Assembly (NCBI GenBank): GCA_018714185.1
Contig: DVNT01000064.1
Location: forward strand, 1 to 64,000
DNA length: 64,000 nucleotides
Direction: 5' to 3'
DNA from: Candidatus Aphodousia gallistercoris
GTDB lineage: Bacteria > Pseudomonadota > Gammaproteobacteria > Burkholderiales > Burkholderiaceae_F
Positions within the stretch are counted from its first letter, which is position 1. The number at the start of each line of letters is the position of its first letter. The notes under the pieces are model-generated. The model was not told the origin of the DNA, ran no database searches, and was given only the letters and a program-made list of their open reading frames with translations. A program made the translations under genes and the position numbers. Of this stretch, positions 23,758-34,688 are shown piece by piece.

Positions 23758-24081
23758 ATGGCGACCTTGCAGAAAAGAATTGAAGACCTTGCCAGACAGA
23801 TAGCTCTTGATCAGATTACCCAAGATATTGAGGCAGAGAACAAGTTTGTTAAGAAAGACGAAATCGGTATTGATGACACAGTCAGCCGACTTCTTTCGCT
23901 TGAAGAAAAAGTTTCTCGTCTTATATCTGTTGCTTGGGTGCAGGAAAAAGTTGAACCTCTTTCACTCAAGACTGTAGATCAATCCAATCCGAATCTTGAT
24001 GCATATGCTGTCAGATTGAACGATCTAGAAGCAAAAGTTTCAGAACTTATAGAAAAGACTTGGAAGCAAGAAACTTTCTGA
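23758..24081 (+). CDS. Small coiled-coil phage protein (107 aa)
   Basis: It starts Met-Ala-Thr-Leu-Gln-Lys-Arg-Ile-Glu-Asp-Leu-Ala-Arg-Gln-Ile, paralleling the start of the previous gene, so the two may be diverged relatives. Two heptad regions (about 45-60 and 85-100) share Leu-Glu-x-Lys-Val-Ser-x-Leu-Ile. It ends before an intrinsic terminator. Role in fibre attachment is inferred from place. Confidence 0.55.
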   Translation: MATLQKRIEDLARQIALDQITQDIEAENKFVKKDEIGIDDTVSRLLSLEEKVSRLISVAWVQEKVEPLSLKTVDQSNPNLDAYAVRLNDLEAKVSELIEKTWKQETF

Positions 24082-24102
24082 AAATTTAATCATTTCAAAC
24101 CT

Positions 24103-24134
24103 AGAGCTGGGTAGCCCCCGGCTCTTTTTTTTTT
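24103..24134 (+). terminator. Intrinsic terminator before the tail fibre gene
   Basis: AGAGC (24103-24107) and adjoining GGG pair with CCC and GCTCT (24121-24125), followed by a run of T to 24134. It stands only 16 bases before the fibre ATG, so fibre transcription either reads through it or starts separately. Confidence 0.75.
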
Positions 24135-24149
24135 ACGGGGTTAAAAAAC

Positions 24150-25004
24150 ATGGCGACTAATGAATTATTGCGATTTGCCAATGGTACCGATCCTAACGTC
24201 ATCGCATTCGCTGAATGGAAAAATCTTCCTGAAGTTACCAAAGGGTTTGTGGCCGGTATCGCAAGAAGCGCGAACATGAATCGTGTTATTGCACAAGGGG
24301 CGTTAGCCGGATACGTGATGGGCCAAGCGATTGTGTCTATTTTGCAAAAAGATGCCAAGCTAGATAGCTCAACATTTTATGAAGACTTCCTTTCGGCTTT
24401 GGCAACTTACATCCCTGCGAATGTTGCCAATGGTTCAATCCCGACCACAAAGCTTCAACAGCTAGCCTCTTATCAAGACATCGAGGCGGGAACTGCGTCT
24501 AAAGTTGTATGCTCAGATGTGCTTTTGCAATATCTCAAGACATTAGTGCCGACCGGTACTTGCCAGTGCATGATGCTTAAGACGGCGCCAGCGGGTTGGA
24601 TGGTCATGGACAACAGTCAAGTTGACTACGAGGATGCTCCTGAGCTTGTTGAACTCTTATGGCAATTTGATTTGACAAAAGGTGACAGCTCGACATACGC
24701 GGTTTTACCGAATATGAACGGTCGCGTCTTCCAGGGAACGACTACAGTAGCCGACGTCTGTAAATACCTCGAAGCCCAGTTACCAAACATTCAAGGTACC
24801 ATGGGTGACAACTACGGTGGAGTTTCCTTCTCTTGCTCTGGTGCGTTATCGTCAGACGGTTCAGAACTAAACTACAGCGGAGCAGGAACGAACCGCATGA
24901 CATATAACGCTGTGCAATTTAAAGCAAGTAATTCAAACGCCATCTATTCTGCATCGACCGTGCAACAAAATGCATTACAAGTCCTTGCTTGTGTTCGATA
25001 CTGA
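24150..25004 (+). CDS. Tail fibre with switchable C-terminus (constant part plus cassette A)
   Basis: The constant part is 24150-24782 (211 codons). It contains a phage tail-collar-like region: Ala-Pro-Ala-Gly-Trp-Met-Val-Met-Asp near residue 150, Tyr-Ala-Val-Leu-Pro-Asn-Met-Asn-Gly-Arg-Val-Phe, then Glu-Ala-Gln-Leu-Pro-Asn-Ile. Pro-Asn-Ile falls exactly on the CCAAACATT site at 24783. The present C-terminus (cassette A, 24783-25004) ends Val-Leu-Ala-Cys-Val-Arg-Tyr and can be replaced by any of 18 silent cassettes. The tip should bind the host receptor. Confidence 0.9.
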   Translation: MATNELLRFANGTDPNVIAFAEWKNLPEVTKGFVAGIARSANMNRVIAQGALAGYVMGQAIVSILQKDAKLDSSTFYEDFLSALATYIPANVANGSIPTTKLQQLASYQDIEAGTASKVVCSDVLLQYLKTLVPTGTCQCMMLKTAPAGWMVMDNSQVDYEDAPELVELLWQFDLTKGDSSTYAVLPNMNGRVFQGTTTVADVCKYLEAQLPNIQGTMGDNYGGVSFSCSGALSSDGSELNYSGAGTNRMTYNAVQFKASNSNAIYSASTVQQNALQVLACVRY

Positions 25005-25223
25005 CCAAACATAATGGGCGAATTTACGCGCATCTCTTATAGGCCCAATGCTGGCGCGACTTATGTTTTTAGATCAAAAACCGCTGGGACATATATTCCT
25101 GTCTTTGAACCCGGGGATTCGTATGAAGTGGTAGAGTTCAATGCTTCACGAGCTTCTGACCTATACAGCGGATCAAGCCTTCAAAATAAATCGCTTCAGA
25201 TTCTCCCTTGCATACGTTGTTAG
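25005..25223 (+). other. Silent fibre cassette B
   Basis: 73 codons including stop, starting Pro-Asn-Ile-Met-Gly and ending Gln-Ile-Leu-Pro-Cys-Ile-Arg-Cys. It follows cassette A directly in the same direction, so sites A and B are direct repeats. It has no start codon or RBS suited to independent expression. Confidence 0.85.
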
Positions 25224-25453
25224 CATCGTATGCAAGGCAGGAACTGAAGTGCAGATTGTTGTACGCTAGATCCGGAAAACATAGACGATGCTTTGGAGGC
25301 ATTTAAACTTATTCTCGTATTTGTTGAGGAACTGCTCATGCTTTGCATGTTCAACAACGGCTGATTATCCCAACCAGAAAAAACTCCATCGGGAGTCTCA
25401 ACACCAAGTCTTACTCCACTTGCTACGATTCCAAAGTTGCCTGTAATGTTTGG
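25220..25453 (-). other. Silent fibre cassette C
   Basis: 78 codons, starting Pro-Asn-Ile-Thr-Gly-Asn-Phe and ending Phe-Leu-Pro-Cys-Ile-Arg-Cys. Its stop overlaps that of cassette B by four bases. Confidence 0.88.
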
Positions 25454-25460
25454 GCCGTTG

Positions 25461-25685
25461 CCAAACATTACGGGATCTGCAACTTGGTATCGAGGCACTT
25501 CAGGCTCCGGCATAACCCAAAGCGGAGCATTGAGTATCAAAAATCAGGGAACCAGCTCATCAACCCATGAATCGGGCAAAGGTGATTTAACACTTACATT
25601 TAATGCTGCTGGGAGTTCCGCAATCTATTCGGGAACTAAGGTACAGGTCAATGCATTGCAGGCACTCCCATGCATTCGGTTCTAA
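25461..25685 (+). other. Silent fibre cassette D
   Basis: 75 codons, starting Pro-Asn-Ile-Thr-Gly-Ser-Ala and ending Ala-Leu-Pro-Cys-Ile-Arg-Phe. Head-to-head with C across a 7-base spacer (25454-25460). Confidence 0.88.
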
Positions 25686-25903
25686 CAGCGGATACATGGC
25701 AGAGATTGAAGCGCAGAAACCTGGAGCTTTGAGCCATTGTAAATGCTAGATGACTTCGTTGCAGAGAATACCAAAGAACGTTGTGCCGTTTCTCCGCTAA
25801 CACTTGCGACAACGGAATCTTCGGCACCTGCAGCTGATATGAAGCCATATGGATCTTGCCACGCAACACCACCTTTTGCTCCTACCCCACCACTGATGTT
25901 TGG
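25682..25903 (-). other. Silent fibre cassette E
   Basis: 74 codons, starting Pro-Asn-Ile-Ser-Gly-Gly-Val and ending Ser-Leu-Pro-Cys-Ile-Arg-Cys. Stop overlaps cassette D by four bases. Confidence 0.88.
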
Positions 25904-25904
25904 C

Positions 25905-26150
25905 CCAAACATTATAGGGAGTGCCAACTTTAATTCTGGAACAGAGTTGACCATGGCATCATCGTTGCGGGGCGGTTCAACAGGTGCTTTCTCGTCTTCC
26001 AATGCGGTTGCTAACGGTTACAGTCCAGGTAGCTCGCAATCAGGCACTTATCGAACTCTTGGGCTGAATTTGCAAAACGGGAACTCGATTTACTCTGGAA
26101 CTAAAATGCAAGTCCAGGCGATACAACTGTTACCATGTATCAAGTGTTAA
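25905..26150 (+). other. Silent fibre cassette F
   Basis: 82 codons, starting Pro-Asn-Ile-Ile-Gly-Ser and ending Leu-Leu-Pro-Cys-Ile-Lys-Cys. Spacer to E is one base. Confidence 0.88.
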
Positions 26151-26392
26151 CACCTGATGCAAGGTAATAATTGCAACGAAGGCGATTGCAGCTTTGTGCC
26201 AGAGTAGCTTGAGTCACTATCTGAAGCTTTAAAGTCTAGATATTGGCAACCAAAATTTGGACCCGCCTCGGTTGCAATTCCATATTTTGTGCCAACATTG
26301 CGAACCTTAAACGCACCTGATGGAGACACAACGTCACATAGAAACTGACCTTGAGGATCTGAACCTCCGTTTAAGCTGCCGCTGATGTTTGG
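26147..26392 (-). other. Silent fibre cassette G
   Basis: 82 codons, starting Pro-Asn-Ile-Ser-Gly-Ser-Leu and ending Leu-Leu-Pro-Cys-Ile-Arg-Cys. Stop overlaps cassette F by four bases. Confidence 0.88.
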
Positions 26393-26394
26393 GC

Positions 26395-26622
26395 CCAAAC
26401 ATTAGCGGTGTAATTTACGGGTTTCGACCGGTTGTCGGCGCATCTAATGACACATCCGGCTTGATTCAAGGTGAGAACAAGCAATATACCGGTTGCTTGA
26501 CTGGCTCTGACTGGACAGACTATGGAGGCTTTTCAATAGACTTTTCACGAGGCAACTCAATCTATACCGGATTAAAAGTGCAAACCAATGCGCTAGAACT
26601 GCTTCCTTGTATTCGTGTTTAG
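26395..26622 (+). other. Silent fibre cassette H
   Basis: 76 codons, starting Pro-Asn-Ile-Ser-Gly-Val-Ile and ending Leu-Leu-Pro-Cys-Ile-Arg-Val. Spacer to G is two bases. Confidence 0.88.
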
Positions 26623-26837
26623 CAACGTATGCAAGGTAGTAGCTGCAACGCTGGATGCTGCATCTTAGAACCTGAGTAGATGCTAGAACTGTTGCTTGCA
26701 TTAAACTTTGTTGAACCATTTAAACTCCCTGTTACCGCTGCTGCCGCTGATGAAGCGCTATCAAAACTAAATGCTCCTGAAGAGCCGTCGCCGCCAGTAG
26801 ATATCCTGACAGCTCGATGGCCACCCGTAATGTTTGG
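26619..26837 (-). other. Silent fibre cassette I
   Basis: 73 codons with no internal Met start, so it is easily missed: Pro-Asn-Ile-Thr-Gly-Gly-His at the site, then a Ser/Ala-rich middle, Ser-Ile-Tyr-Ser-Gly-Ser-Lys-Met-Gln and Leu-Leu-Pro-Cys-Ile-Arg-Cys at the end. Confidence 0.88.
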
Positions 26838-26843
26838 TACTGT

Positions 26844-27077
26844 CCAAACATCTCGGGGTATTTCTCAATTCGTAATACTCAAGGTGCTGTTACTACGACC
26901 GCTCCGTTCAGTTCTGATACCTCGGGGCAAAGCGGTAGCAGCCAAGCTTTGGCACTTACCCAAGCCGCACACGGAATACAAAGCATTTATTTCAATGCTT
27001 CGGATTCCAACGCTTCATATGCCGGCACAAAGCTTCAAATGCAATCGTTGCAAGCTTTACCCTGTATCAGATTCTGA
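26844..27077 (+). other. Silent fibre cassette J
   Basis: 78 codons, starting Pro-Asn-Ile-Ser-Gly-Tyr and ending Ala-Leu-Pro-Cys-Ile-Arg-Phe. Spacer to I is six bases. Confidence 0.88.
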
Positions 27078-27291
27078 TGCACGGAAGGCATTGCAGCGCC
27101 GGAGACTGCATTTTGTTGCCTGAATAAATTGAGCTGCTGTCAGATGCATCTAAATACAAATTCACACACGGGTTACCAGCTGACTCACAACCGATATTGA
27201 CGCTGTTATTACCGTAGCTTAAAGCTCCGAAAGCTGAGGCCGTTTGTGATGATGTTAAACCTGGCGCCGAGAAACTACCTGAGATGTTTGG
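27067..27291 (-). other. Silent fibre cassette K
   Basis: 75 codons, starting Pro-Asn-Ile-Ser-Gly-Ser-Phe and ending Cys-Leu-Pro-Cys-Ile-Arg-Ile. It overlaps the end of J by 11 bases. Confidence 0.88.
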
Positions 27292-27298
27292 GGTCTGT

Positions 27299-27523
27299 CC
27301 AAACATTACGGGACAAATTAAAGATTTGTCCTCAACAGCTGCTGGAAACGCCTTGGCCAATGGTGCTTTTTTGTGGTTATCATCAAGTTCGCAGATTCAA
27401 ACGATAGCAGTTGAAAATGGTTCATGCGATCCATCGTTTGACGCTTCACGTGTTTCAAGCTTGTACTCTGGTTCCAAACTTCAGCAAGCAGCTTTGCAAA
27501 TGTTGCCCTGTATTAGAACTTAA
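27299..27523 (+). other. Silent fibre cassette L
   Basis: 75 codons, starting Pro-Asn-Ile-Thr-Gly-Gln-Ile and ending Met-Leu-Pro-Cys-Ile-Arg-Thr. Spacer to K is seven bases. Confidence 0.88.
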
Positions 27524-27731
27524 TGCAGGGGAGACACTGCAACGCTGCTGCTTGGAGTTTATTGCCAACATACATAGCATTTGACTTCGTTGCAGAAAAG
27601 TACGCAATCCACGATCCCTGCGAGGCGCGAGCTTCGCCTTGACCAGCAGTCTGAATTCCGCCAATTGAGACGAACCCAGAAGGATTGGTTAAGTCAGAGT
27701 TGTGGCTTCCCAGTTGCCCGCTAATGTTTGG
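27513..27731 (-). other. Silent fibre cassette M
   Basis: 73 codons, starting Pro-Asn-Ile-Ser-Gly-Gln-Leu and ending Cys-Leu-Pro-Cys-Ile-Lys-Phe. It overlaps the end of L by 11 bases. Confidence 0.88.
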
Positions 27732-27732
27732 G

Positions 27733-27954
27733 CCAAACATTACGGGTTGGCTGTATGACGTCCATGCTGGTGCAGGGGCTACAGCAACACAAGTTGCTAC
27801 TTGGTCAAAGTCTGGTAATCGTCAAGGCGCAGCTCTTTCAGGCGACTGGCAATACGGAGGATTCGGGTTTGATGCCTCCCGTTGTTCATCAACTTACACC
27901 GGTTCAAAGCTGCAAGCCCCAGCCCTGCAAGCTCTTCCATGCATCCGGTACTAA
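27733..27954 (+). other. Silent fibre cassette N
   Basis: 74 codons, starting Pro-Asn-Ile-Thr-Gly-Trp-Leu and ending Ala-Leu-Pro-Cys-Ile-Arg-Tyr. Spacer to M is one base, giving a near-perfect palindrome. Confidence 0.88.
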
Positions 27955-28181
27955 CACCGAATACATGGAAAAAGCTGAAGTGCTGGAGATTGCATCTTAG
28001 TCCCCGAGTAGATTGATGAGCATCTTGATGCATCAACACAAACAACTTCTATGTTTGTAAGAGGTTCAGCATAATGCGACATTGCTTCCCCCTCTGTAAC
28101 CACTCTTGAGTAAAAAGCACCGGTGGGAAAGAAGGTGGTATTTGATTCACCTCCATTATCGGAATCTCCCGTAATGTTTGG
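27951..28181 (-). other. Silent fibre cassette O
   Basis: 77 codons, starting Pro-Asn-Ile-Thr-Gly-Asp and ending Leu-Phe-Pro-Cys-Ile-Arg-Cys. Stop overlaps cassette N by four bases. Confidence 0.88.
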
Positions 28182-28188
28182 ACAGCCC

Positions 28189-28407
28189 CCAAACACAACT
28201 GGACGTTTTTATGCCAGCTCTGCAGTTTTTGTTAATGGGGTATTTGCAAAATCAACCGGTTCTGATAACCAAAGGATATTAAATTCAAATCAATCTGACG
28301 TTTCAAATACAACTTTTGACTTCTCCTTAAGCAAGTCGAATGACATATATTCAGGGACAAAATTGCAGGTCAGTTCCTTGCAACTCTTAGCATGTGTCAA
28401 ATGTTAG
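28189..28407 (+). other. Silent fibre cassette P
   Basis: 73 codons, starting Pro-Asn-Thr-Thr-Gly-Arg and ending Leu-Leu-Ala-Cys-Val-Lys-Cys. Its site reads CCAAACACA, one of three variants outside the first seven bases. Confidence 0.86.
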
Positions 28408-28628
28408 AAGCGAATACAAGGTAGTGCTTGCAAAGCAGATGGCTGAACGGTTGAACCGTTGTACACAGAGTTGCTGCTGGACGCATTCAGGTAAATAAAA
28501 ACGTCTCCTTTCCCAGAGCCTCCAAACTCTGCCAATGACGTACCTGAAGTCGAAAAACTTAGGGCACCATGACCTTGCCCTCCGCTTGTGGTACCACTGG
28601 CCCAATTGGCATCACCCTGGATGTTTGG
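28404..28628 (-). other. Silent fibre cassette Q
   Basis: 75 codons, starting Pro-Asn-Ile-Gln-Gly-Asp-Ala and ending Ala-Leu-Pro-Cys-Ile-Arg-Phe. Its middle (Asn-Trp, Gly-Thr, Gly-Ala-Leu-Ser) resembles cassette D. Confidence 0.88.
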
Positions 28629-28636
28629 ACAGACTA

Positions 28637-28873
28637 CCAAACAGCACCGGCTTAATTGGTCAAAATGTCGGAGACCAAGGGCAAGTTGAATTTAATGCTT
28701 CGGGTTCATTTCAAGCTATAGCGAACGGCTCACGAAAGTTCCCTAAAGCATCTGACTATGATTCTCCTATGCCGAATCAGGTGAAATTCGATCTATCGCG
28801 ATCATCAAGCATTTTCAGTGGCGCAAAACTTCAAGTCGCATCTTTACAGTGCCTACCATGTATTCGATGCTAA
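28637..28873 (+). other. Silent fibre cassette R
   Basis: 79 codons, starting Pro-Asn-Ser-Thr-Gly-Leu and ending Cys-Leu-Pro-Cys-Ile-Arg-Cys. Its site reads CCAAACAGC. Spacer to Q is eight bases. Confidence 0.86.
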
Positions 28874-29091
28874 ATTCGTATGCACGGCAAGAACTGGAGG
28901 CTTGATGGCTGTAGCTTGGCGCCAGTGTACAAACTTGAGTTAAGAGATGCATCGAAAGTTAATACTCTCGTTGTCTCGGAAGGGCCGCCCGCAAAAGTTC
29001 CTGTTGTGCCACTTCCTTCTGACCACTTAAAAGGATCGCTGGAACCATAGTCGACATACCGTCTAAAGGTAACTGTTCCACTAATGTTTGG
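28870..29091 (-). other. Silent fibre cassette S (outermost)
   Basis: 74 codons, starting Pro-Asn-Ile-Ser-Gly-Thr-Val and ending Phe-Leu-Pro-Cys-Ile-Arg-Ile. Its site marks the distal border of the array; no further CCAAACA copy follows before the recombinase gene. Confidence 0.88.
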
Positions 29092-29187
29092 TCCCATTAT
29101 TAGGCTTCTGGAGTAGGGGAGTTATCAGTGTGAGTAAAGTGCCGAGCACGGTTTTTCGGCTGTGCTCAGCGATTGTTAACAGATTGA

Positions 29188-30333
29188 TTATTTAGCTAAT
29201 TCGTCTAAAAGGCCGGCACTTCGAGCACATTCTTTTACGAATGCGCTCCAGCGCTCCATGACGGCCCGTCTGGCGTCAAGAAAATCTGACCTTTGGTAAG
29301 CCCTTGAAACTTTGTCACCGACTGCATGAGAAAGACAAGCTTCGGCAACTTCGAATTGGATTCCGTTATCTGCGAGCCAGGATCGGGCAATTGAACGCAA
29401 GCCGTGAGCAACAAGTTCATTTTTTAATTTGGACTGATGTAACCACTTTGCGAGAGCTTGTTTTGATAAGTGCCCGTCGGATTTTCGACCTGAGAAGACA
29501 AATTTGTTCCTAGGATGTGGGGAAAAAGATTTCTCGCGCTCAAGAAGTTCCTTCATAAAAGGAGTGATAGGAACGCGATGCTCACGACGTTTTTTCATTT
29601 TTGTAGCTGGAATAACGATTGTGTCAGCATCAATCCATGATTTTTCGAGAGATGCAACTTCGCCTGGGCGCAACATCGAGCATAGCGAAAACAAAAAATA
29701 GTTTTGCATTCGGGGTGATGCAGTTTTAAAAGTGCTCATGACGTGATCAAGTTCTCGCCAGTTAACAGATGGCATCGGTTTAGTGACAGGGGGAGCAAAA
29801 ACTTTTGAGACCCGATCGATGGGGTTGTGTTCAATGTAACCTGCGCAGACGGCTAAATCGAGGATTTCACGAAGGCGCATCAAGATTCTTTTGAGTGTTG
29901 ATCGTTTACCCGCATTTTCAATAGGTTGAACAACTTTAATCGCAAGAGGCGCTGTGATCTCATCAAGTTGCCGGGTACCGATATGACGAATAAGGTAGCG
30001 TTCAATGCGCCGTTTTTCATCAGCATAGCTGACGATGCGCCCGCGCTTCAGGTTACACCAAAGCACAAAAGCATCTCTTAGTGTGTAGCCGGCAACTGGT
30101 GACAAATTGAAGGATTTAAGTTTTTTACGGGCTATTTGTCGGGCCTGAGCTAACGACAGTTCTGGGAATTTTCCGAGTGTGATATCAATTGTTCTTCCAT
30201 TTTGCGGAACGCGTAATAGAAAACTTTTGACACCGGTCGGTTGCACTCTCAATGTCAACCCTTTTTCGAGTGCTAGAGAATAGCGCTTATCTCGCGGCTT
30301 CAATGCCGCTATTTTTTTACTAGTGAGGTTCAT
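29188..30333 (-). CDS. Tyrosine recombinase, probable shufflon invertase
   Basis: Residues 1-75 form a DUF4102-like arm-binding domain (Leu-Thr-Leu-Arg-Val, Ile-Thr-Leu-Gly-Lys-Phe-Pro-Glu-Leu-Ser). A SAM-like core-binding region follows, then a catalytic domain with Arg222 (Met-Leu-Arg-Pro-Gly-Glu), Lys245, His310-x-x-Arg313, His336 and Tyr346, all present. It is 381 aa. The gene lies 96 bases after the last cassette and points toward the array. A separate integrase serves the att site, so this enzyme most likely catalyses cassette inversion. It could still be a second integrase. Confidence 0.8.
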   Translation of the reverse strand: MNLTSKKIAALKPRDKRYSLALEKGLTLRVQPTGVKSFLLRVPQNGRTIDITLGKFPELSLAQARQIARKKLKSFNLSPVAGYTLRDAFVLWCNLKRGRIVSYADEKRRIERYLIRHIGTRQLDEITAPLAIKVVQPIENAGKRSTLKRILMRLREILDLAVCAGYIEHNPIDRVSKVFAPPVTKPMPSVNWRELDHVMSTFKTASPRMQNYFLFSLCSMLRPGEVASLEKSWIDADTIVIPATKMKKRREHRVPITPFMKELLEREKSFSPHPRNKFVFSGRKSDGHLSKQALAKWLHQSKLKNELVAHGLRSIARSWLADNGIQFEVAEACLSHAVGDKVSRAYQRSDFLDARRAVMERWSAFVKECARSAGLLDELAK

Positions 30334-30335
30334 AA

Positions 30336-30953
30336 ATGACTACTCCTGAAAAAAACAACGCGATCGAAGCTCCGATTGCTTACATCTACGATGAAGATGG
30401 CTACTACTTTTTGTGCAAGCCCAAACAAGAGAGCCCGCGCGTTAAGGGAAAGTTTCTCACGCCGTTGAACTCGACCGAAGTAGAACCTGAAATTCCCGAT
30501 GGCTACTTTGCGCATTGGAGCGGCGCCAAATGGGAATACGAGAAGATCCCGTCAACGGCTGAAGAGTTCGTCGGCGCGAAGATCTCGCACAAGAGTCAGA
30601 CAGCTCGCAATCAACTGCTTCGACAGCTTTTGCAGAAGCTTGTTGAAGAAGACTCTGACCACTATCGAGTTATTCGTGGGTCTGAAGAAGAGGGACTGTG
30701 GTGGTCCGTTGAAAGGATTCCTGAAAAAACGCAAGACGAAAAGGATCTCGAGGCCGCGAAGCTCGAAGAGCAAAAAGCGATGGCTTACTTAAACTCCACG
30801 GATTACGTTGCTGTGAAAATCGCCGAAGGTGTTGCTACTAAAGATGAGTATGCAGACGTTCTGCAAAAACGTGCCGAGACACGAGAGCTGATAAACGGAC
30901 TTCGCGCGACGCAAGAAACCTTAACTGCAAAAATCGGAGCAGCAAGTGATTGA
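30336..30953 (+). CDS. Tail fibre assembly chaperone, Tfa-like (205 aa)
   Basis: The N-terminal region (Ala-Tyr-Ile-Tyr-Asp-Glu-Asp-Gly-Tyr-Tyr) and Ile-Pro-Asp-Gly-Tyr-Phe-Ala-His-Trp-Ser-Gly-Ala-Lys-Trp-Glu-Tyr are typical of Tfa-like proteins, which fold and trimerise fibre tips. The rest is helical. Its start is only two bases from the divergent recombinase start. The array and recombinase thus sit between a fibre gene and its chaperone, which would have to serve all 19 tips. Confidence 0.75.
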   Translation: MTTPEKNNAIEAPIAYIYDEDGYYFLCKPKQESPRVKGKFLTPLNSTEVEPEIPDGYFAHWSGAKWEYEKIPSTAEEFVGAKISHKSQTARNQLLRQLLQKLVEEDSDHYRVIRGSEEEGLWWSVERIPEKTQDEKDLEAAKLEEQKAMAYLNSTDYVAVKIAEGVATKDEYADVLQKRAETRELINGLRATQETLTAKIGAASD

Positions 30954-32686: not shown

Positions 32687-34069
32687 CTATTTTATCTTAG
32701 AGAAGCAAAATTCTCCCCAGTCCTCTAAAATTTCTCGCATTTCACCGATTACAGAACGCCTCAGGTAGGCGTTGTTGTACTTCTCCGTAACATGGTCCAA
32801 ACAGTGTTCAATTGCTTTTTCTGAATACTGCTTGTGGCCATATCTCACTGAGTCATAAGCCCACGTTTCAAAGCTCGCACGGGCAGTCCCATGTAAGCTG
32901 ATGTTTGGGGCTTTGCCTCCTCTTGTTAAATTGTTATCAACAAAAGGCTCAAGACCTCTTTTTATTCTTGCAGCGTTCATCTTTTTGATAAACAGATAAG
33001 CCGCACTTGTGCTCAGAGGTGTCAACCCTCCTTTTCCGTCCGATTTTGAAAAAACAAAGTTACGGTCCTCACTAATATTTATATAGCGAGGTACTGTTGC
33101 TAAAAGCTCAACGGCTTGTTGAGAGAGAGGGGTCTCTTTGTCAAACTTGATGACACGCTTTACTTTCATCTCGTCACGCTTTGTGACCTGGATCGGTGCA
33201 TCTTTGTGATCTTTGGGGTCTAAGAATATCTCGGACCAAAGGACCAAACGTGCATTAGAAGCTCGATTGCAAGTCAAAATTGTAAATTGAATGTACTTGG
33301 CAACAATTCCTGTGTGGGTTTGTAGCTCTGCAAAGAGATCTGGGATTAAGTCTGGCGATAGCGCAGGTTGATGCCCTTTTTGTGGTCTCTCAGAATCTGG
33401 CGCCAATAGGTCCCTCAGTTTACCTTTTAAGTCAGCAGGATTATTCATAGCTGGAATTTTTCCGCTTCTAATCCCGAAATCGAAAGCCCGCTTCATTTCG
33501 CCTAAAACCCTTTCTGGTGTGTCTACAAGGGACCTCCACGAATTTTCAAAAACATCTGCAAGGATTTCGGGAGTTAAGTCTTTCGCAGGCATCTTCCGAA
33601 CTTCTTCAGGAATGTGAACACGAATCCATCCGGATACGGTTTCAGTGTGTGTTTTTGAAAGTTTTTGCCCCTTTACATTAGACGACTGCCACAAACGATT
33701 CTCGCCAAAATCACAATAGTCGAACATCATTTTCTGCACTGAGTAAACTTTCTCGACCTTTTTGGCTTCGTTTTTCGCTTTTCGGGCTTCGATGGCTTCC
33801 TGCCTCGGATTCTCTCCCTTTTTTACTTTATTGCGCCAGTCAAGGGCTATCTTTCTTGCTTCTTCAAGAGAGGTTTCCGGATACGGCCCGATAGATAGGT
33901 ACTTCAAATTTCCGTCAACAGACATTCTGAGTTGGAAGGTTCTGCTGAAATTACCGTCGCTAATAGGCCTTACTTTTAAAATTAATCCCTTGACCCCTCC
34001 GACTGCGATAGTCTTCTTTGCCACTCTAGCTTGTCGGTCTGTCAGAATAGGAACAGATCTATTTGCCAT
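32687..34069 (-). CDS. int: Phage integrase, tyrosine recombinase (P4-like, ssrA-targeting)
   Basis: An N-terminal DUF4102-like domain (residues 1-95, Leu-Ser-Ile-Gly-Pro-Tyr-Pro-Glu-Thr-Ser-Leu-Glu-Glu-Ala-Arg) precedes a core-binding region. The catalytic domain shows Arg in Thr-Cys-Asn-Arg-Ala-Ser-Asn-Ala-Arg, a His-Gly-Thr-Ala-Arg box near residue 400, His in His-Cys-Leu-Asp-His and the nucleophile in Asn-Ala-Tyr-Leu-Arg-Arg. Length 460 aa. GGGAG precedes the ATG. The gene lies 250 bases from the 3' end of ssrA, the likely attB. Confidence 0.9.
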   Translation of the reverse strand: MANRSVPILTDRQARVAKKTIAVGGVKGLILKVRPISDGNFSRTFQLRMSVDGNLKYLSIGPYPETSLEEARKIALDWRNKVKKGENPRQEAIEARKAKNEAKKVEKVYSVQKMMFDYCDFGENRLWQSSNVKGQKLSKTHTETVSGWIRVHIPEEVRKMPAKDLTPEILADVFENSWRSLVDTPERVLGEMKRAFDFGIRSGKIPAMNNPADLKGKLRDLLAPDSERPQKGHQPALSPDLIPDLFAELQTHTGIVAKYIQFTILTCNRASNARLVLWSEIFLDPKDHKDAPIQVTKRDEMKVKRVIKFDKETPLSQQAVELLATVPRYINISEDRNFVFSKSDGKGGLTPLSTSAAYLFIKKMNAARIKRGLEPFVDNNLTRGGKAPNISLHGTARASFETWAYDSVRYGHKQYSEKAIEHCLDHVTEKYNNAYLRRSVIGEMREILEDWGEFCFSKIK

Positions 34070-34318: not shown

Positions 34319-34345
34319 TGGTGGAGACGGCGGGAATCGAACCCG
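34319..34345. other. Inferred attachment site region (attR side) in the ssrA 3' end
   Basis: The prophage abuts the T-arm and acceptor end of tmRNA. Integrating phages that use ssrA keep the gene intact by carrying a copy of its 3' end. The exact core cannot be fixed without the other junction. Confidence 0.5.
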
Positions 34346-34688
34346 CGTCCAGAAATCGTCCATAACCGGATCTACATGCTTATTCAAAGAATTTAAAAAA
34401 TCTCACTCTGCTTCCCACCCCTTGACTGGTTCTGGCAGAGCCAGGTACTTTTTAGTCTCGATTGCCGAGCAGTGCCCTCAAGGCAATCCAGCCTGTATCA
34501 ATATGAAACCGCTGCTAGCGAACTAGCCTGGCCTAGAGGCAAACCAGTGCGGTCCTCGCCTAAATTAAGCGGCGAGAGCGAAACGCTTGTTATTGGCGTT
34601 TATTTATTTTCCAGCGGATTTACAAGGTGACTGGACCTTGACATGCACCGTGCCACTTCGTGATCCCTGTCGAAACCAGGTCGTCCCC
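34319..34688 (-). ncRNA. ssrA: tmRNA (transfer-messenger RNA)
   Basis: The 5' end GGGGACG (34688 down) pairs with CGTCTCC near the 3' end, which finishes ACCA at 34319. A tRNA-like T-arm GGTTCGATTCCC is visible, and the 5' part has TGGTTTCGAC. The tag frame (34597-34565) reads Ala-Asn-Asn-Lys-Arg-Phe-Ala-Leu-Ala-Ala followed by TAA, with the usual Ala-Leu-Ala-Ala degradation signal. tmRNA rescues stalled ribosomes and marks the product for proteolysis. Length about 370 nt. Confidence 0.95.

What the first reader, a model, noticed from the sequence alone, without database searches (positions are those of the whole stretch)
24783..29091. A 19-cassette shufflon in a phage tail fibre gene
The sequence shows one constant fibre region followed by 19 alternative C-termini, 10 on the plus and 9 on the minus strand. 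Each begins with CCAAACA, is in frame from the site to its stop (73-82 codons), and ends in a related Tyr-Ser-Gly...Leu-Pro-Cys-Ile-Arg tip. Known shufflons (R64 pilus) have about seven alternative ends; phage invertible fibres (Mu, P1) have two. The system would generate at least 19 receptor-binding tips from one prophage, a form of combinatorial host-range diversification I have not seen described at this size in a tyrosine-recombinase phage system.
Basis: partly seen in the sequence, partly recalled or inferred. Interest (0 to 1): 0.95.

Follow-up and report, generated by a model that had tools for sequence, protein, structure and literature searches.

The report
Nineteen-tip phage tail-fibre shufflon
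A prophage tail-fibre gene has 19 alternative endings lined up behind it, each headed by the same 7-base site, which a neighbouring recombinase is predicted to swap in one at a time, so that one virus would make many versions of the tip that likely grips its host.

Summary
At 24783-29091 lie 19 CCAAACA sites (10 plus, 9 minus), each opening a 72-81-residue frame ending in a related tip. The constant fibre part is 24150-24782. A 381-residue tyrosine recombinase flanks the array (29188-30333, minus), apart from an integrase-like gene by the tmRNA.

Related sequences show switching. A public protein carries this constant region (209/211) joined at the site to a tip identical to silent cassette 28189+. 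Of 106 fibre pairs with constant parts at least 97% identical, 103 have tips under 60% identical. In Duodenibacillus massiliensis a cassette silent in one locus is fused in a near-identical second one. A Parasutterella secunda assembly breaks at the site on both sides.

Relatives of the recombinase sit beside similar arrays in Sutterellaceae. The 7-base core is fixed within an array and differs among arrays.

The kind is known: Rin of Bifidobacterium prophages, five tips. New are the 19 tips, the arm-bearing recombinase and the Sutterellaceae family of arrays. Activity in this prophage and receptor binding are not shown directly.

The parts
24150..24782 (+). constant N-terminal part of the tail-fibre gene (211 aa); full current ORF 24150-25004
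   Evidence: PF07484 Collar at residues 140-193; PHROG tail fiber matches
24783..24789 (+). acceptor crossover site inside the fibre gene, CCAAACA, encodes Pro-Asn
   Evidence: in frame with 24150
24783..25004 (+). cassette 1 (tip in frame at present)
25005..25223 (+). cassette 2
25220..25453 (-). cassette 3
25461..25685 (+). cassette 4
25682..25903 (-). cassette 5
25905..26150 (+). cassette 6
26147..26392 (-). cassette 7
26395..26622 (+). cassette 8
26619..26837 (-). cassette 9
26844..27077 (+). cassette 10
27067..27291 (-). cassette 11
27299..27523 (+). cassette 12
27513..27731 (-). cassette 13
27733..27954 (+). cassette 14
27951..28181 (-). cassette 15
28189..28407 (+). cassette 16; its tip is found letter for letter behind the same constant region in public protein P0002
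28404..28628 (-). cassette 17
28637..28873 (+). cassette 18
28870..29091 (-). cassette 19
29188..30333 (-). likely shufflon recombinase, 381 aa tyrosine recombinase with arm (PF13356), central (PF22022) and catalytic (PF00589) domains
   Evidence: alignment of 9 sequences, window included, with R222, K247, H310, R313, H336, Y346 invariant (that these are the catalytic residues is recalled); relatives beside arrays
30336..30953 (+). gene divergent from the recombinase; at the same position in L034 and L035 there is a DUF4376 gene (no Pfam match for this copy)
32687..34069 (-). separate integrase-like gene (460 aa, PF13356, PF22022 just below its cut-off, no PF00589 match), possibly the prophage integrase
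   Evidence: next to the tmRNA
34319..34688 (-). tmRNA, possible prophage attachment gene (no duplicate att copy of 14 nt or more found in the window)

Best explanation
This is a tail-fibre shufflon: one constant fibre gene has 19 in-frame alternative tips lined up behind it, and the adjacent 381-residue tyrosine recombinase is predicted to recombine the shared 7-base CCAAACA core so that a different tip would be read on from the constant part. Shown: the anatomy; the same constant part joined to different tips at the site in other assemblies; relatives of the recombinase beside comparable arrays. Inferred: that this recombinase is the catalyst, that inversion between oppositely oriented sites is the main reaction, and that the tips bind receptors. 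Mechanism as I read it. The 7-base core is the strand-exchange overlap, since it is identical within a locus but has four versions among eight loci. The recombinase is positioned by the arm on the cassette side (T.A..GG). The other arm is not conserved, so productive pairing is biased to inversion, the model published for Rci's one-armed sites. Inverting the stretch between the acceptor site (24783+) and any minus-strand site brings a new tip into frame. Inversions among inner sites bring plus-strand cassettes within reach. CCAAACA also encodes the Pro-Asn of the fibre's conserved P-N-x-x-G turn, so every junction stays in frame.
For: Anatomy: 19 sites, 19 open frames, a related C-terminal tip in every cassette. 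Switching, same fibre: P0002 has the constant region at 209/211 and a 72-residue tip identical to silent cassette 28189+. Switching, related fibres: 106 pairs with constant at least 97% identical, 103 with tips under 60% identical; one set of six has identical constant parts and six different tips (58 of 96 proteins could be split at the site motif, 38 were dropped). D. massiliensis: in L052 the constant region is joined exactly at CCGGACAT to a cassette that in the near-identical L048 locus lies in the opposite orientation and is silent. P. secunda An562: the constant-side contig and the array-side contig both end in CCAAACATTA. Recombinase: of 13 loci with a whole or nearly whole relative, counting the window, 11 show at least one site-headed cassette downstream; the other 2 end 208 and 265 nt past the gene. 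Eleven full-length ones (9 of them with a cassette called) form one clade, 100/99, apart from 12 other integrases, the 460-aa protein and R64 Rci (rows were picked by similarity). Site: core invariant in 5 of 5 arrays with at least 5 sites, right arm 1.08-1.59 bits a position, left arm 0.42-1.11 (outside the window the search pattern fixed four of the seven core positions).
Against: No reads were available, so inversion in this prophage is not seen directly. The sources of the P0002 contigs are not shown, and its constant part differs at 2 residues; the present form, P0001, is itself on two contigs. The protein collection is clustered at 90%, which hides pairs sharing constant and tip and inflates the 103/106. 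Five other relatives' contigs stop near or in the recombinase or array but not at a site (L046, L047, L051, L054, L057). L052 has only one cassette called, its enzyme matches from residue 53 only, and repeated insertion-like sequence surrounds it, so it is a degraded locus and may reflect deletion as well as inversion. L050 has five sites all in one orientation, the last cassette truncated to 49 residues. The blind array detector gave up to 3 frames beside a control integrase (L025); with 1500 nt downstream only four relatives exceed that (L048, L049, L050, L058), so loci with 1-2 cassettes rest on site and tip matches alone.
Confidence: 0.9

Rival explanations
1. A silent-cassette store used by general homologous recombination (gene conversion), with the site merely a conserved coding motif.
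For: P-N-x-x-G would be conserved for protein reasons; three tips of related phages match window cassettes at 64-75%, so cassettes are kept by descent.
Against: Seven bases are identical at nucleotide level in 19 of 19, including codon third positions, while the flanking bases vary, and the core differs among loci but not within them. Middle parts of cassettes are only 18% identical at the median, leaving little homology for RecA. A distinct recombinase clade sits beside the arrays.
Confidence: 0.04
2. The array is shuffled, but by another enzyme (the 460-aa integrase-like protein or one encoded elsewhere), and the 381-aa protein is the prophage's integrase.
For: The 381-aa protein has ordinary integrase domains; the 460-aa protein has no PF00589 match; three further PF00589 matches lie elsewhere in the genome, one with an internal stop.
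Against: In four relatives a second integrase-like match lies on the same contig 2.9-6.4 kb away (G002:C15, G060:C35, G056:C127, G010:C17). The clade's 3' end faces the arrays across genera.
Confidence: 0.05
3. A dead relic: the array was once shuffled but is now fixed in this prophage.
For: This contig assembled through the whole array in one order, and the present form is on two contigs (P0001).
Against: All 19 frames are intact and the recombinase is open with the conserved residues kept; P0002 shows the near-identical fibre with another tip.
Confidence: 0.06
4. A serine-invertase (Gin/Min type) or diversity-generating retroelement system.
For: Both are known to vary phage fibres.
Against: The genome's only PF00239 match lies on contig C41 and the RVT_1 matches on C25 and C68, none on the window's contig C52; cassettes are wholly different, not point-mutated. 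The genome is 87% complete.
Confidence: 0.01

Closest known systems
Rin shufflon of Bifidobacterium breve/longum prophages (PMC6109161, section 8 read); Rin-like locus in Eggerthella lenta prophages (PMC8778435, part 1 of section 21 read)
   Same: Constant receptor-binding-protein N-terminus, several 3' cassettes, a short asymmetric repeat at each head with inverted copies, two directly oriented sites framing the expressed tip, a dedicated tyrosine recombinase distinct from the integrase.
   Different: Five tips in Bifidobacterium, 19 here; an 11-bp (or 8-bp) repeat of other sequence; Rin is described as lacking the arm-binding domain, this enzyme has it (PF13356); actinobacterial hosts there, a contractile-tail prophage of the Parasutterella genus here.
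R64/IncI2 pilV shufflon with Rci (PMC5430464 abstract and passages; PMC11852207 passages)
   Same: Double-ended segments, 7-bp core with one conserved and one variable arm, tyrosine recombinase beside the array, assembly trouble from mixed forms.
   Different: Pilus adhesin with seven variants; Rci has only PF00589 and no significant blastp match to this enzyme (23%, E 0.09).
Min (p15B), Gin (Mu), Cin (P1) tail-fibre inversion, as described in PMC6109161; gin-driven three-tip shufflon of an Enterobacter phage (PMC13418256, passages read)
   Same: Phage fibre C-termini exchanged by DNA inversion.
   Different: Serine recombinases (for gin in the Enterobacter phage by name only) and three tips in that phage; no serine recombinase match on this contig.
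P4-like prophage integrases (PF13356-PF22022-PF00589; the 'P4-like' label is recalled)
   Same: Same three-domain architecture.
   Different: At most 36% identity in matches over most of the query for other family integrases and 31% for the top-listed phage-collection match; a separate clade beside arrays.

Membership tests
Rin-type phage shufflon | constant RBP 5' part plus several alternative 3' parts headed by one short repeat in both orientations | tested here: met
Rin-type phage shufflon | dedicated tyrosine recombinase at the far end, distinct from an integrase gene | tested here: met
   (the integrase role of the 460-aa gene is inferred)
Rin-type phage shufflon | expressed tip framed by two directly oriented sites | tested here: met
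   24783+ and 25005+
Rin-type phage shufflon | recombinase without arm-type DNA-binding domain | tested here: not met
   PF13356 at residues 3-73, E 5.1e-14
Rin-type phage shufflon | inversions seen among related prophages or in reads | tested here: inconclusive
   Swapped tips and one inverted, fused cassette in relatives; no reads
Rci shufflon | recombinase homologous to Rci beyond the shared catalytic domain | tested here: not met
Rci shufflon | 7-bp invariant core, one conserved and one variable arm | tested here: met
   compared
Rci shufflon | pilV adhesin gene | tested here: not met
   tail-fibre gene with Collar domain
Min/Gin/Cin | serine recombinase beside the array | tested here: not met
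   the only PF00239 match in the genome is on contig C41
Diversity-generating retroelement | reverse transcriptase near the variable gene | tested here: not met
   RVT_1 matches only on C25 and C68; template/variable repeats were not searched
Shufflon (functional sense) | rearrangement in cells, lost without the recombinase | not testable with these tools
   needs reads and a deletion

The most novel reading that the evidence does not exclude
Gut Sutterellaceae phages have turned an integrase of the arm-domain type into a dedicated shuffling enzyme, giving a whole family of tail-fibre shufflons (2 to 19 tips) whose 7-base core is fixed within an array but drifts between lineages. The Parasutterella prophage here is its largest member: one phage genome that keeps generating 19 host-recognition tips, while automatic annotation calls the enzyme a plain integrase.
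Probability: 0.72. Interest if true: 0.82.

Novelty: new variant of a known kind. Interest (0 to 1): 0.72.

Why it matters
It would make host-range variation in gut phages a question that can be measured from existing long reads: 19 tips, one constant fibre, one enzyme. The arrays come as a natural series (2, 5, 6, 8, 10, 19 cassettes) with diverged enzymes and cores, which lets one ask how an integrase becomes an inversion enzyme and how site choice coevolves with it. The recombinase profile matches 558 public protein clusters at E <= 1e-90 (120 listed; only the best candidates were scored); the three names shown among the 120 are generic integrase or recombinase. Whether those clusters sit beside arrays was not looked at, but such arrays are probably common and unrecognised. 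Where they break assemblies, fibre diversity in gut phages is likely under-counted.

Tried and rejected
Direct viral-contig scans with the recombinase and the constant region, and with fibre alignment A2, found no relative. The alignment-based recombinase scan found four loci.

I did not follow them up and took them as chance.

The lone own-genome palindrome at C60:15863 lies inside a 93-aa ORF and was rejected as chance.

A duplicate att site of the tmRNA 3' end was not found in the window at 14 nt or more.

The fold of the whole fibre was poor (pLDDT 42.7) and that of one cassette weak (66.4), so no fold search was run. A sequence profile of the fibre matches a long tail fibre in the PDB over profile positions 93-212 only (8kec_A, E 1.6e-4), with two further weak matches (E 0.15 and 0.71), none reaching the tips.

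Promoter and terminator scans of 23900-30500 found fewer sites than the shuffles gave on average and were not used.

L040 turned out to be a near-exact copy (1 mismatch in 3620) of L048, so it gives no rearrangement and was left out of counts. Short partial recombinase matches (G064, G052, G051) were also left out. One L048 hit (12581+) is an internal start of cassette 12560+, so L048 has 10 cassettes, not 11 as my notes say.
Full report
WHAT IS THERE. The left half is a contractile-tail prophage: terminase, portal, tail sheath, tape measure and baseplate proteins match PHROGs. A tail-fibre gene at 24150 (Collar domain at residues 140-193) reads through CCAAACA at 24783 into its present tip. 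From there to 29091 lie 19 copies of CCAAACA, 10 plus and 9 minus, each opening a frame of 72-81 residues. Over all start positions tried in that stretch, true sites included, 226 of 8018 give such a frame. Cassettes 2-19 form nine tail-to-tail pairs whose stop codons overlap by 4 nt (7 of 9) or 11 nt (2 of 9). The tips are related at both ends but differ in the middle, with median identity 18% there.

THE ENZYME. At 29188-30333 (minus), just past the array, is a 381-residue tyrosine recombinase with arm, central and catalytic domains. The six residues I recall as catalytic are invariant in the nine aligned sequences, window included. A second integrase-like gene (32687-34069) lies beside the tmRNA and may be the prophage's integrase. 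It has no PF00589 match, and no second att copy was found in the window, so that role is inferred.

RELATIVES. A search of 67 genomes of the family gave eight genomes with a close recombinase, the window's own included (the other best matches 54-80% identity, E below 1e-130); other integrases in the same list stay at or below 36% when they align over most of the query. Order-wide, 4 of 399 genomes matched at E <= 1e-60, all four in this family. Named hosts are Parasutterella secunda, Duodenibacillus massiliensis, Sutterella wadsworthensis, Sutterella massiliensis (partial) and uncultured Sutterella and Duodenibacillus. Eleven full-length enzymes form one clade (100/99) against 12 other family integrases, the 460-aa protein and R64 Rci. 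The rows were picked by similarity, so the tree shows that they stand apart, not how they were chosen; 9 of the 11 have a cassette called downstream. Arrays by site-headed cassettes: window 19, L048 10, L058 8, L049 6, L050 5 (the last truncated), L053 2, L055 2, L045 2 before the contig end, L046 1 and L051 1 before the contig end, L052 1. In L047 and L057 only 265 and 208 nt follow the gene, with no cassette called. L054 has a truncated enzyme at a contig end, L056 is the same locus as L052 and L040 a copy of L048; these and short partial matches were left out of the count of 13. Around 19 control integrases a blind detector never gave more than 3 frames per side; with 1500 nt downstream it gave 4-6 for L048, L049, L050 and L058, but only 0-2 for the other eight relatives.

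SITE LOGIC. Within a locus the 7-base core never varies (19/19, 10/10, 6/6, 5/5, 8/8 and three pairs), yet eight loci show four versions: CCAAACA, CCGGACA, CCGAATA, CCGAACA (outside the window sites were found with a pattern that allowed these variants but fixed positions 1, 2, 5 and 7). The cassette-side arm is conserved (T.A..GG), the outer arm less so. This is what an overlap region plus a one-armed site would look like. It parallels Rci sites, described as a 7-bp core with one conserved and one variable arm, an asymmetry proposed to limit Rci to inversion (PMC11852207, passages read). The likeness is functional; the two enzymes share only the catalytic domain family.

EVIDENCE OF SWITCHING. 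(a) P0002, on two public contigs whose source is not shown, has this constant region (209 of 211) and a 72-residue tip identical to silent cassette 28189+. (b) Of 96 fetched fibre relatives, 58 could be split at the site motif and 38 were dropped; 106 pairs have constant parts at least 97% identical, and 103 of these have tips under 60% identical. Six proteins with identical constant parts carry six tips. Clustering of the source at 90% inflates this share. (c) D. massiliensis carries two near-identical loci (96.6-100% over the matching pieces). In L052 the constant region is fused at CCGGACAT to the cassette that in L048 (12560+) lies silent in the other orientation, and no other cassette was called. 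L052 is degraded: its enzyme matches only from residue 53 and repeated insertion-like sequence surrounds it. (d) In the P. secunda An562 assembly the constant-side contig ends in CAGTTACCAAACATTA and the array-side contig ends in the same CCAAACATTA. My inference is that a 10-base repeat alone should not break an assembly, while mixed junctions would; published shufflons are described as hard to assemble even from an isolated clone (PMC5430464, abstract and passages). Five other relatives' contigs end elsewhere.

WHAT IS NOT SHOWN. No reads were available, so rearrangement in this strain, its rate and whether it happens in lysogens or virions are unknown. That the recombinase acts on the sites, that inversion outweighs deletion and that tips bind receptors are inferences.

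KNOWN OR NEW. Ten literature searches turned up two reports of tyrosine-recombinase phage shufflons: Rin with five tips and its Eggerthella relatives. They also turned up a three-tip gin-driven case. In the rows listed (only part of the hits) I saw no Sutterellaceae phage shufflon and none with as many tips; the library lacks most subscription papers and all preprints. This enzyme fails the Rin feature 'no arm domain' and the Rci homology test, so I file it as a new variant of the phage shufflon kind, not as a Rin or Rci member.

Noticed in passing
L052 (D. massiliensis NZ_LT635859) against L048 (NZ_LT635856): Two near-identical prophage fibre loci in one genome, one with 10 cassettes and one reduced to a single fused cassette with a recombinase lacking its first 52 residues and repeated insertion-like sequence around it.
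   Followed up: partly
protein P0033: A fibre constant region runs at the site into a DUF4376-type C-terminus (PF14301 precomputed), as if a deletion had fused it to the gene that lies beyond the recombinase in relatives.
   Followed up: no
L050:5715-6810 (Duodenibacillus MAG): Five cassettes all in one orientation, the last truncated at 49 codons: a decaying or differently used array.
   Followed up: partly
G064 contigs C83 and C1 (L041, L042): Two contigs both begin at nearly the same place inside a recombinase relative (residues 1-119 kept), so two copies diverge at one point.
   Followed up: no
window 32687-34069: The integrase-like gene beside the tmRNA has an arm-domain match and a central-domain match just under its cut-off, but no catalytic-domain match at 1e-3.
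   Followed up: partly
G000:C12:13284-13745: A PF00589 match elsewhere in the genome has an internal TAA stop.
   Followed up: no
G000:C25:10978-11601 and C68:79357-81563: Reverse-transcriptase-like matches elsewhere in the genome.
   Followed up: no
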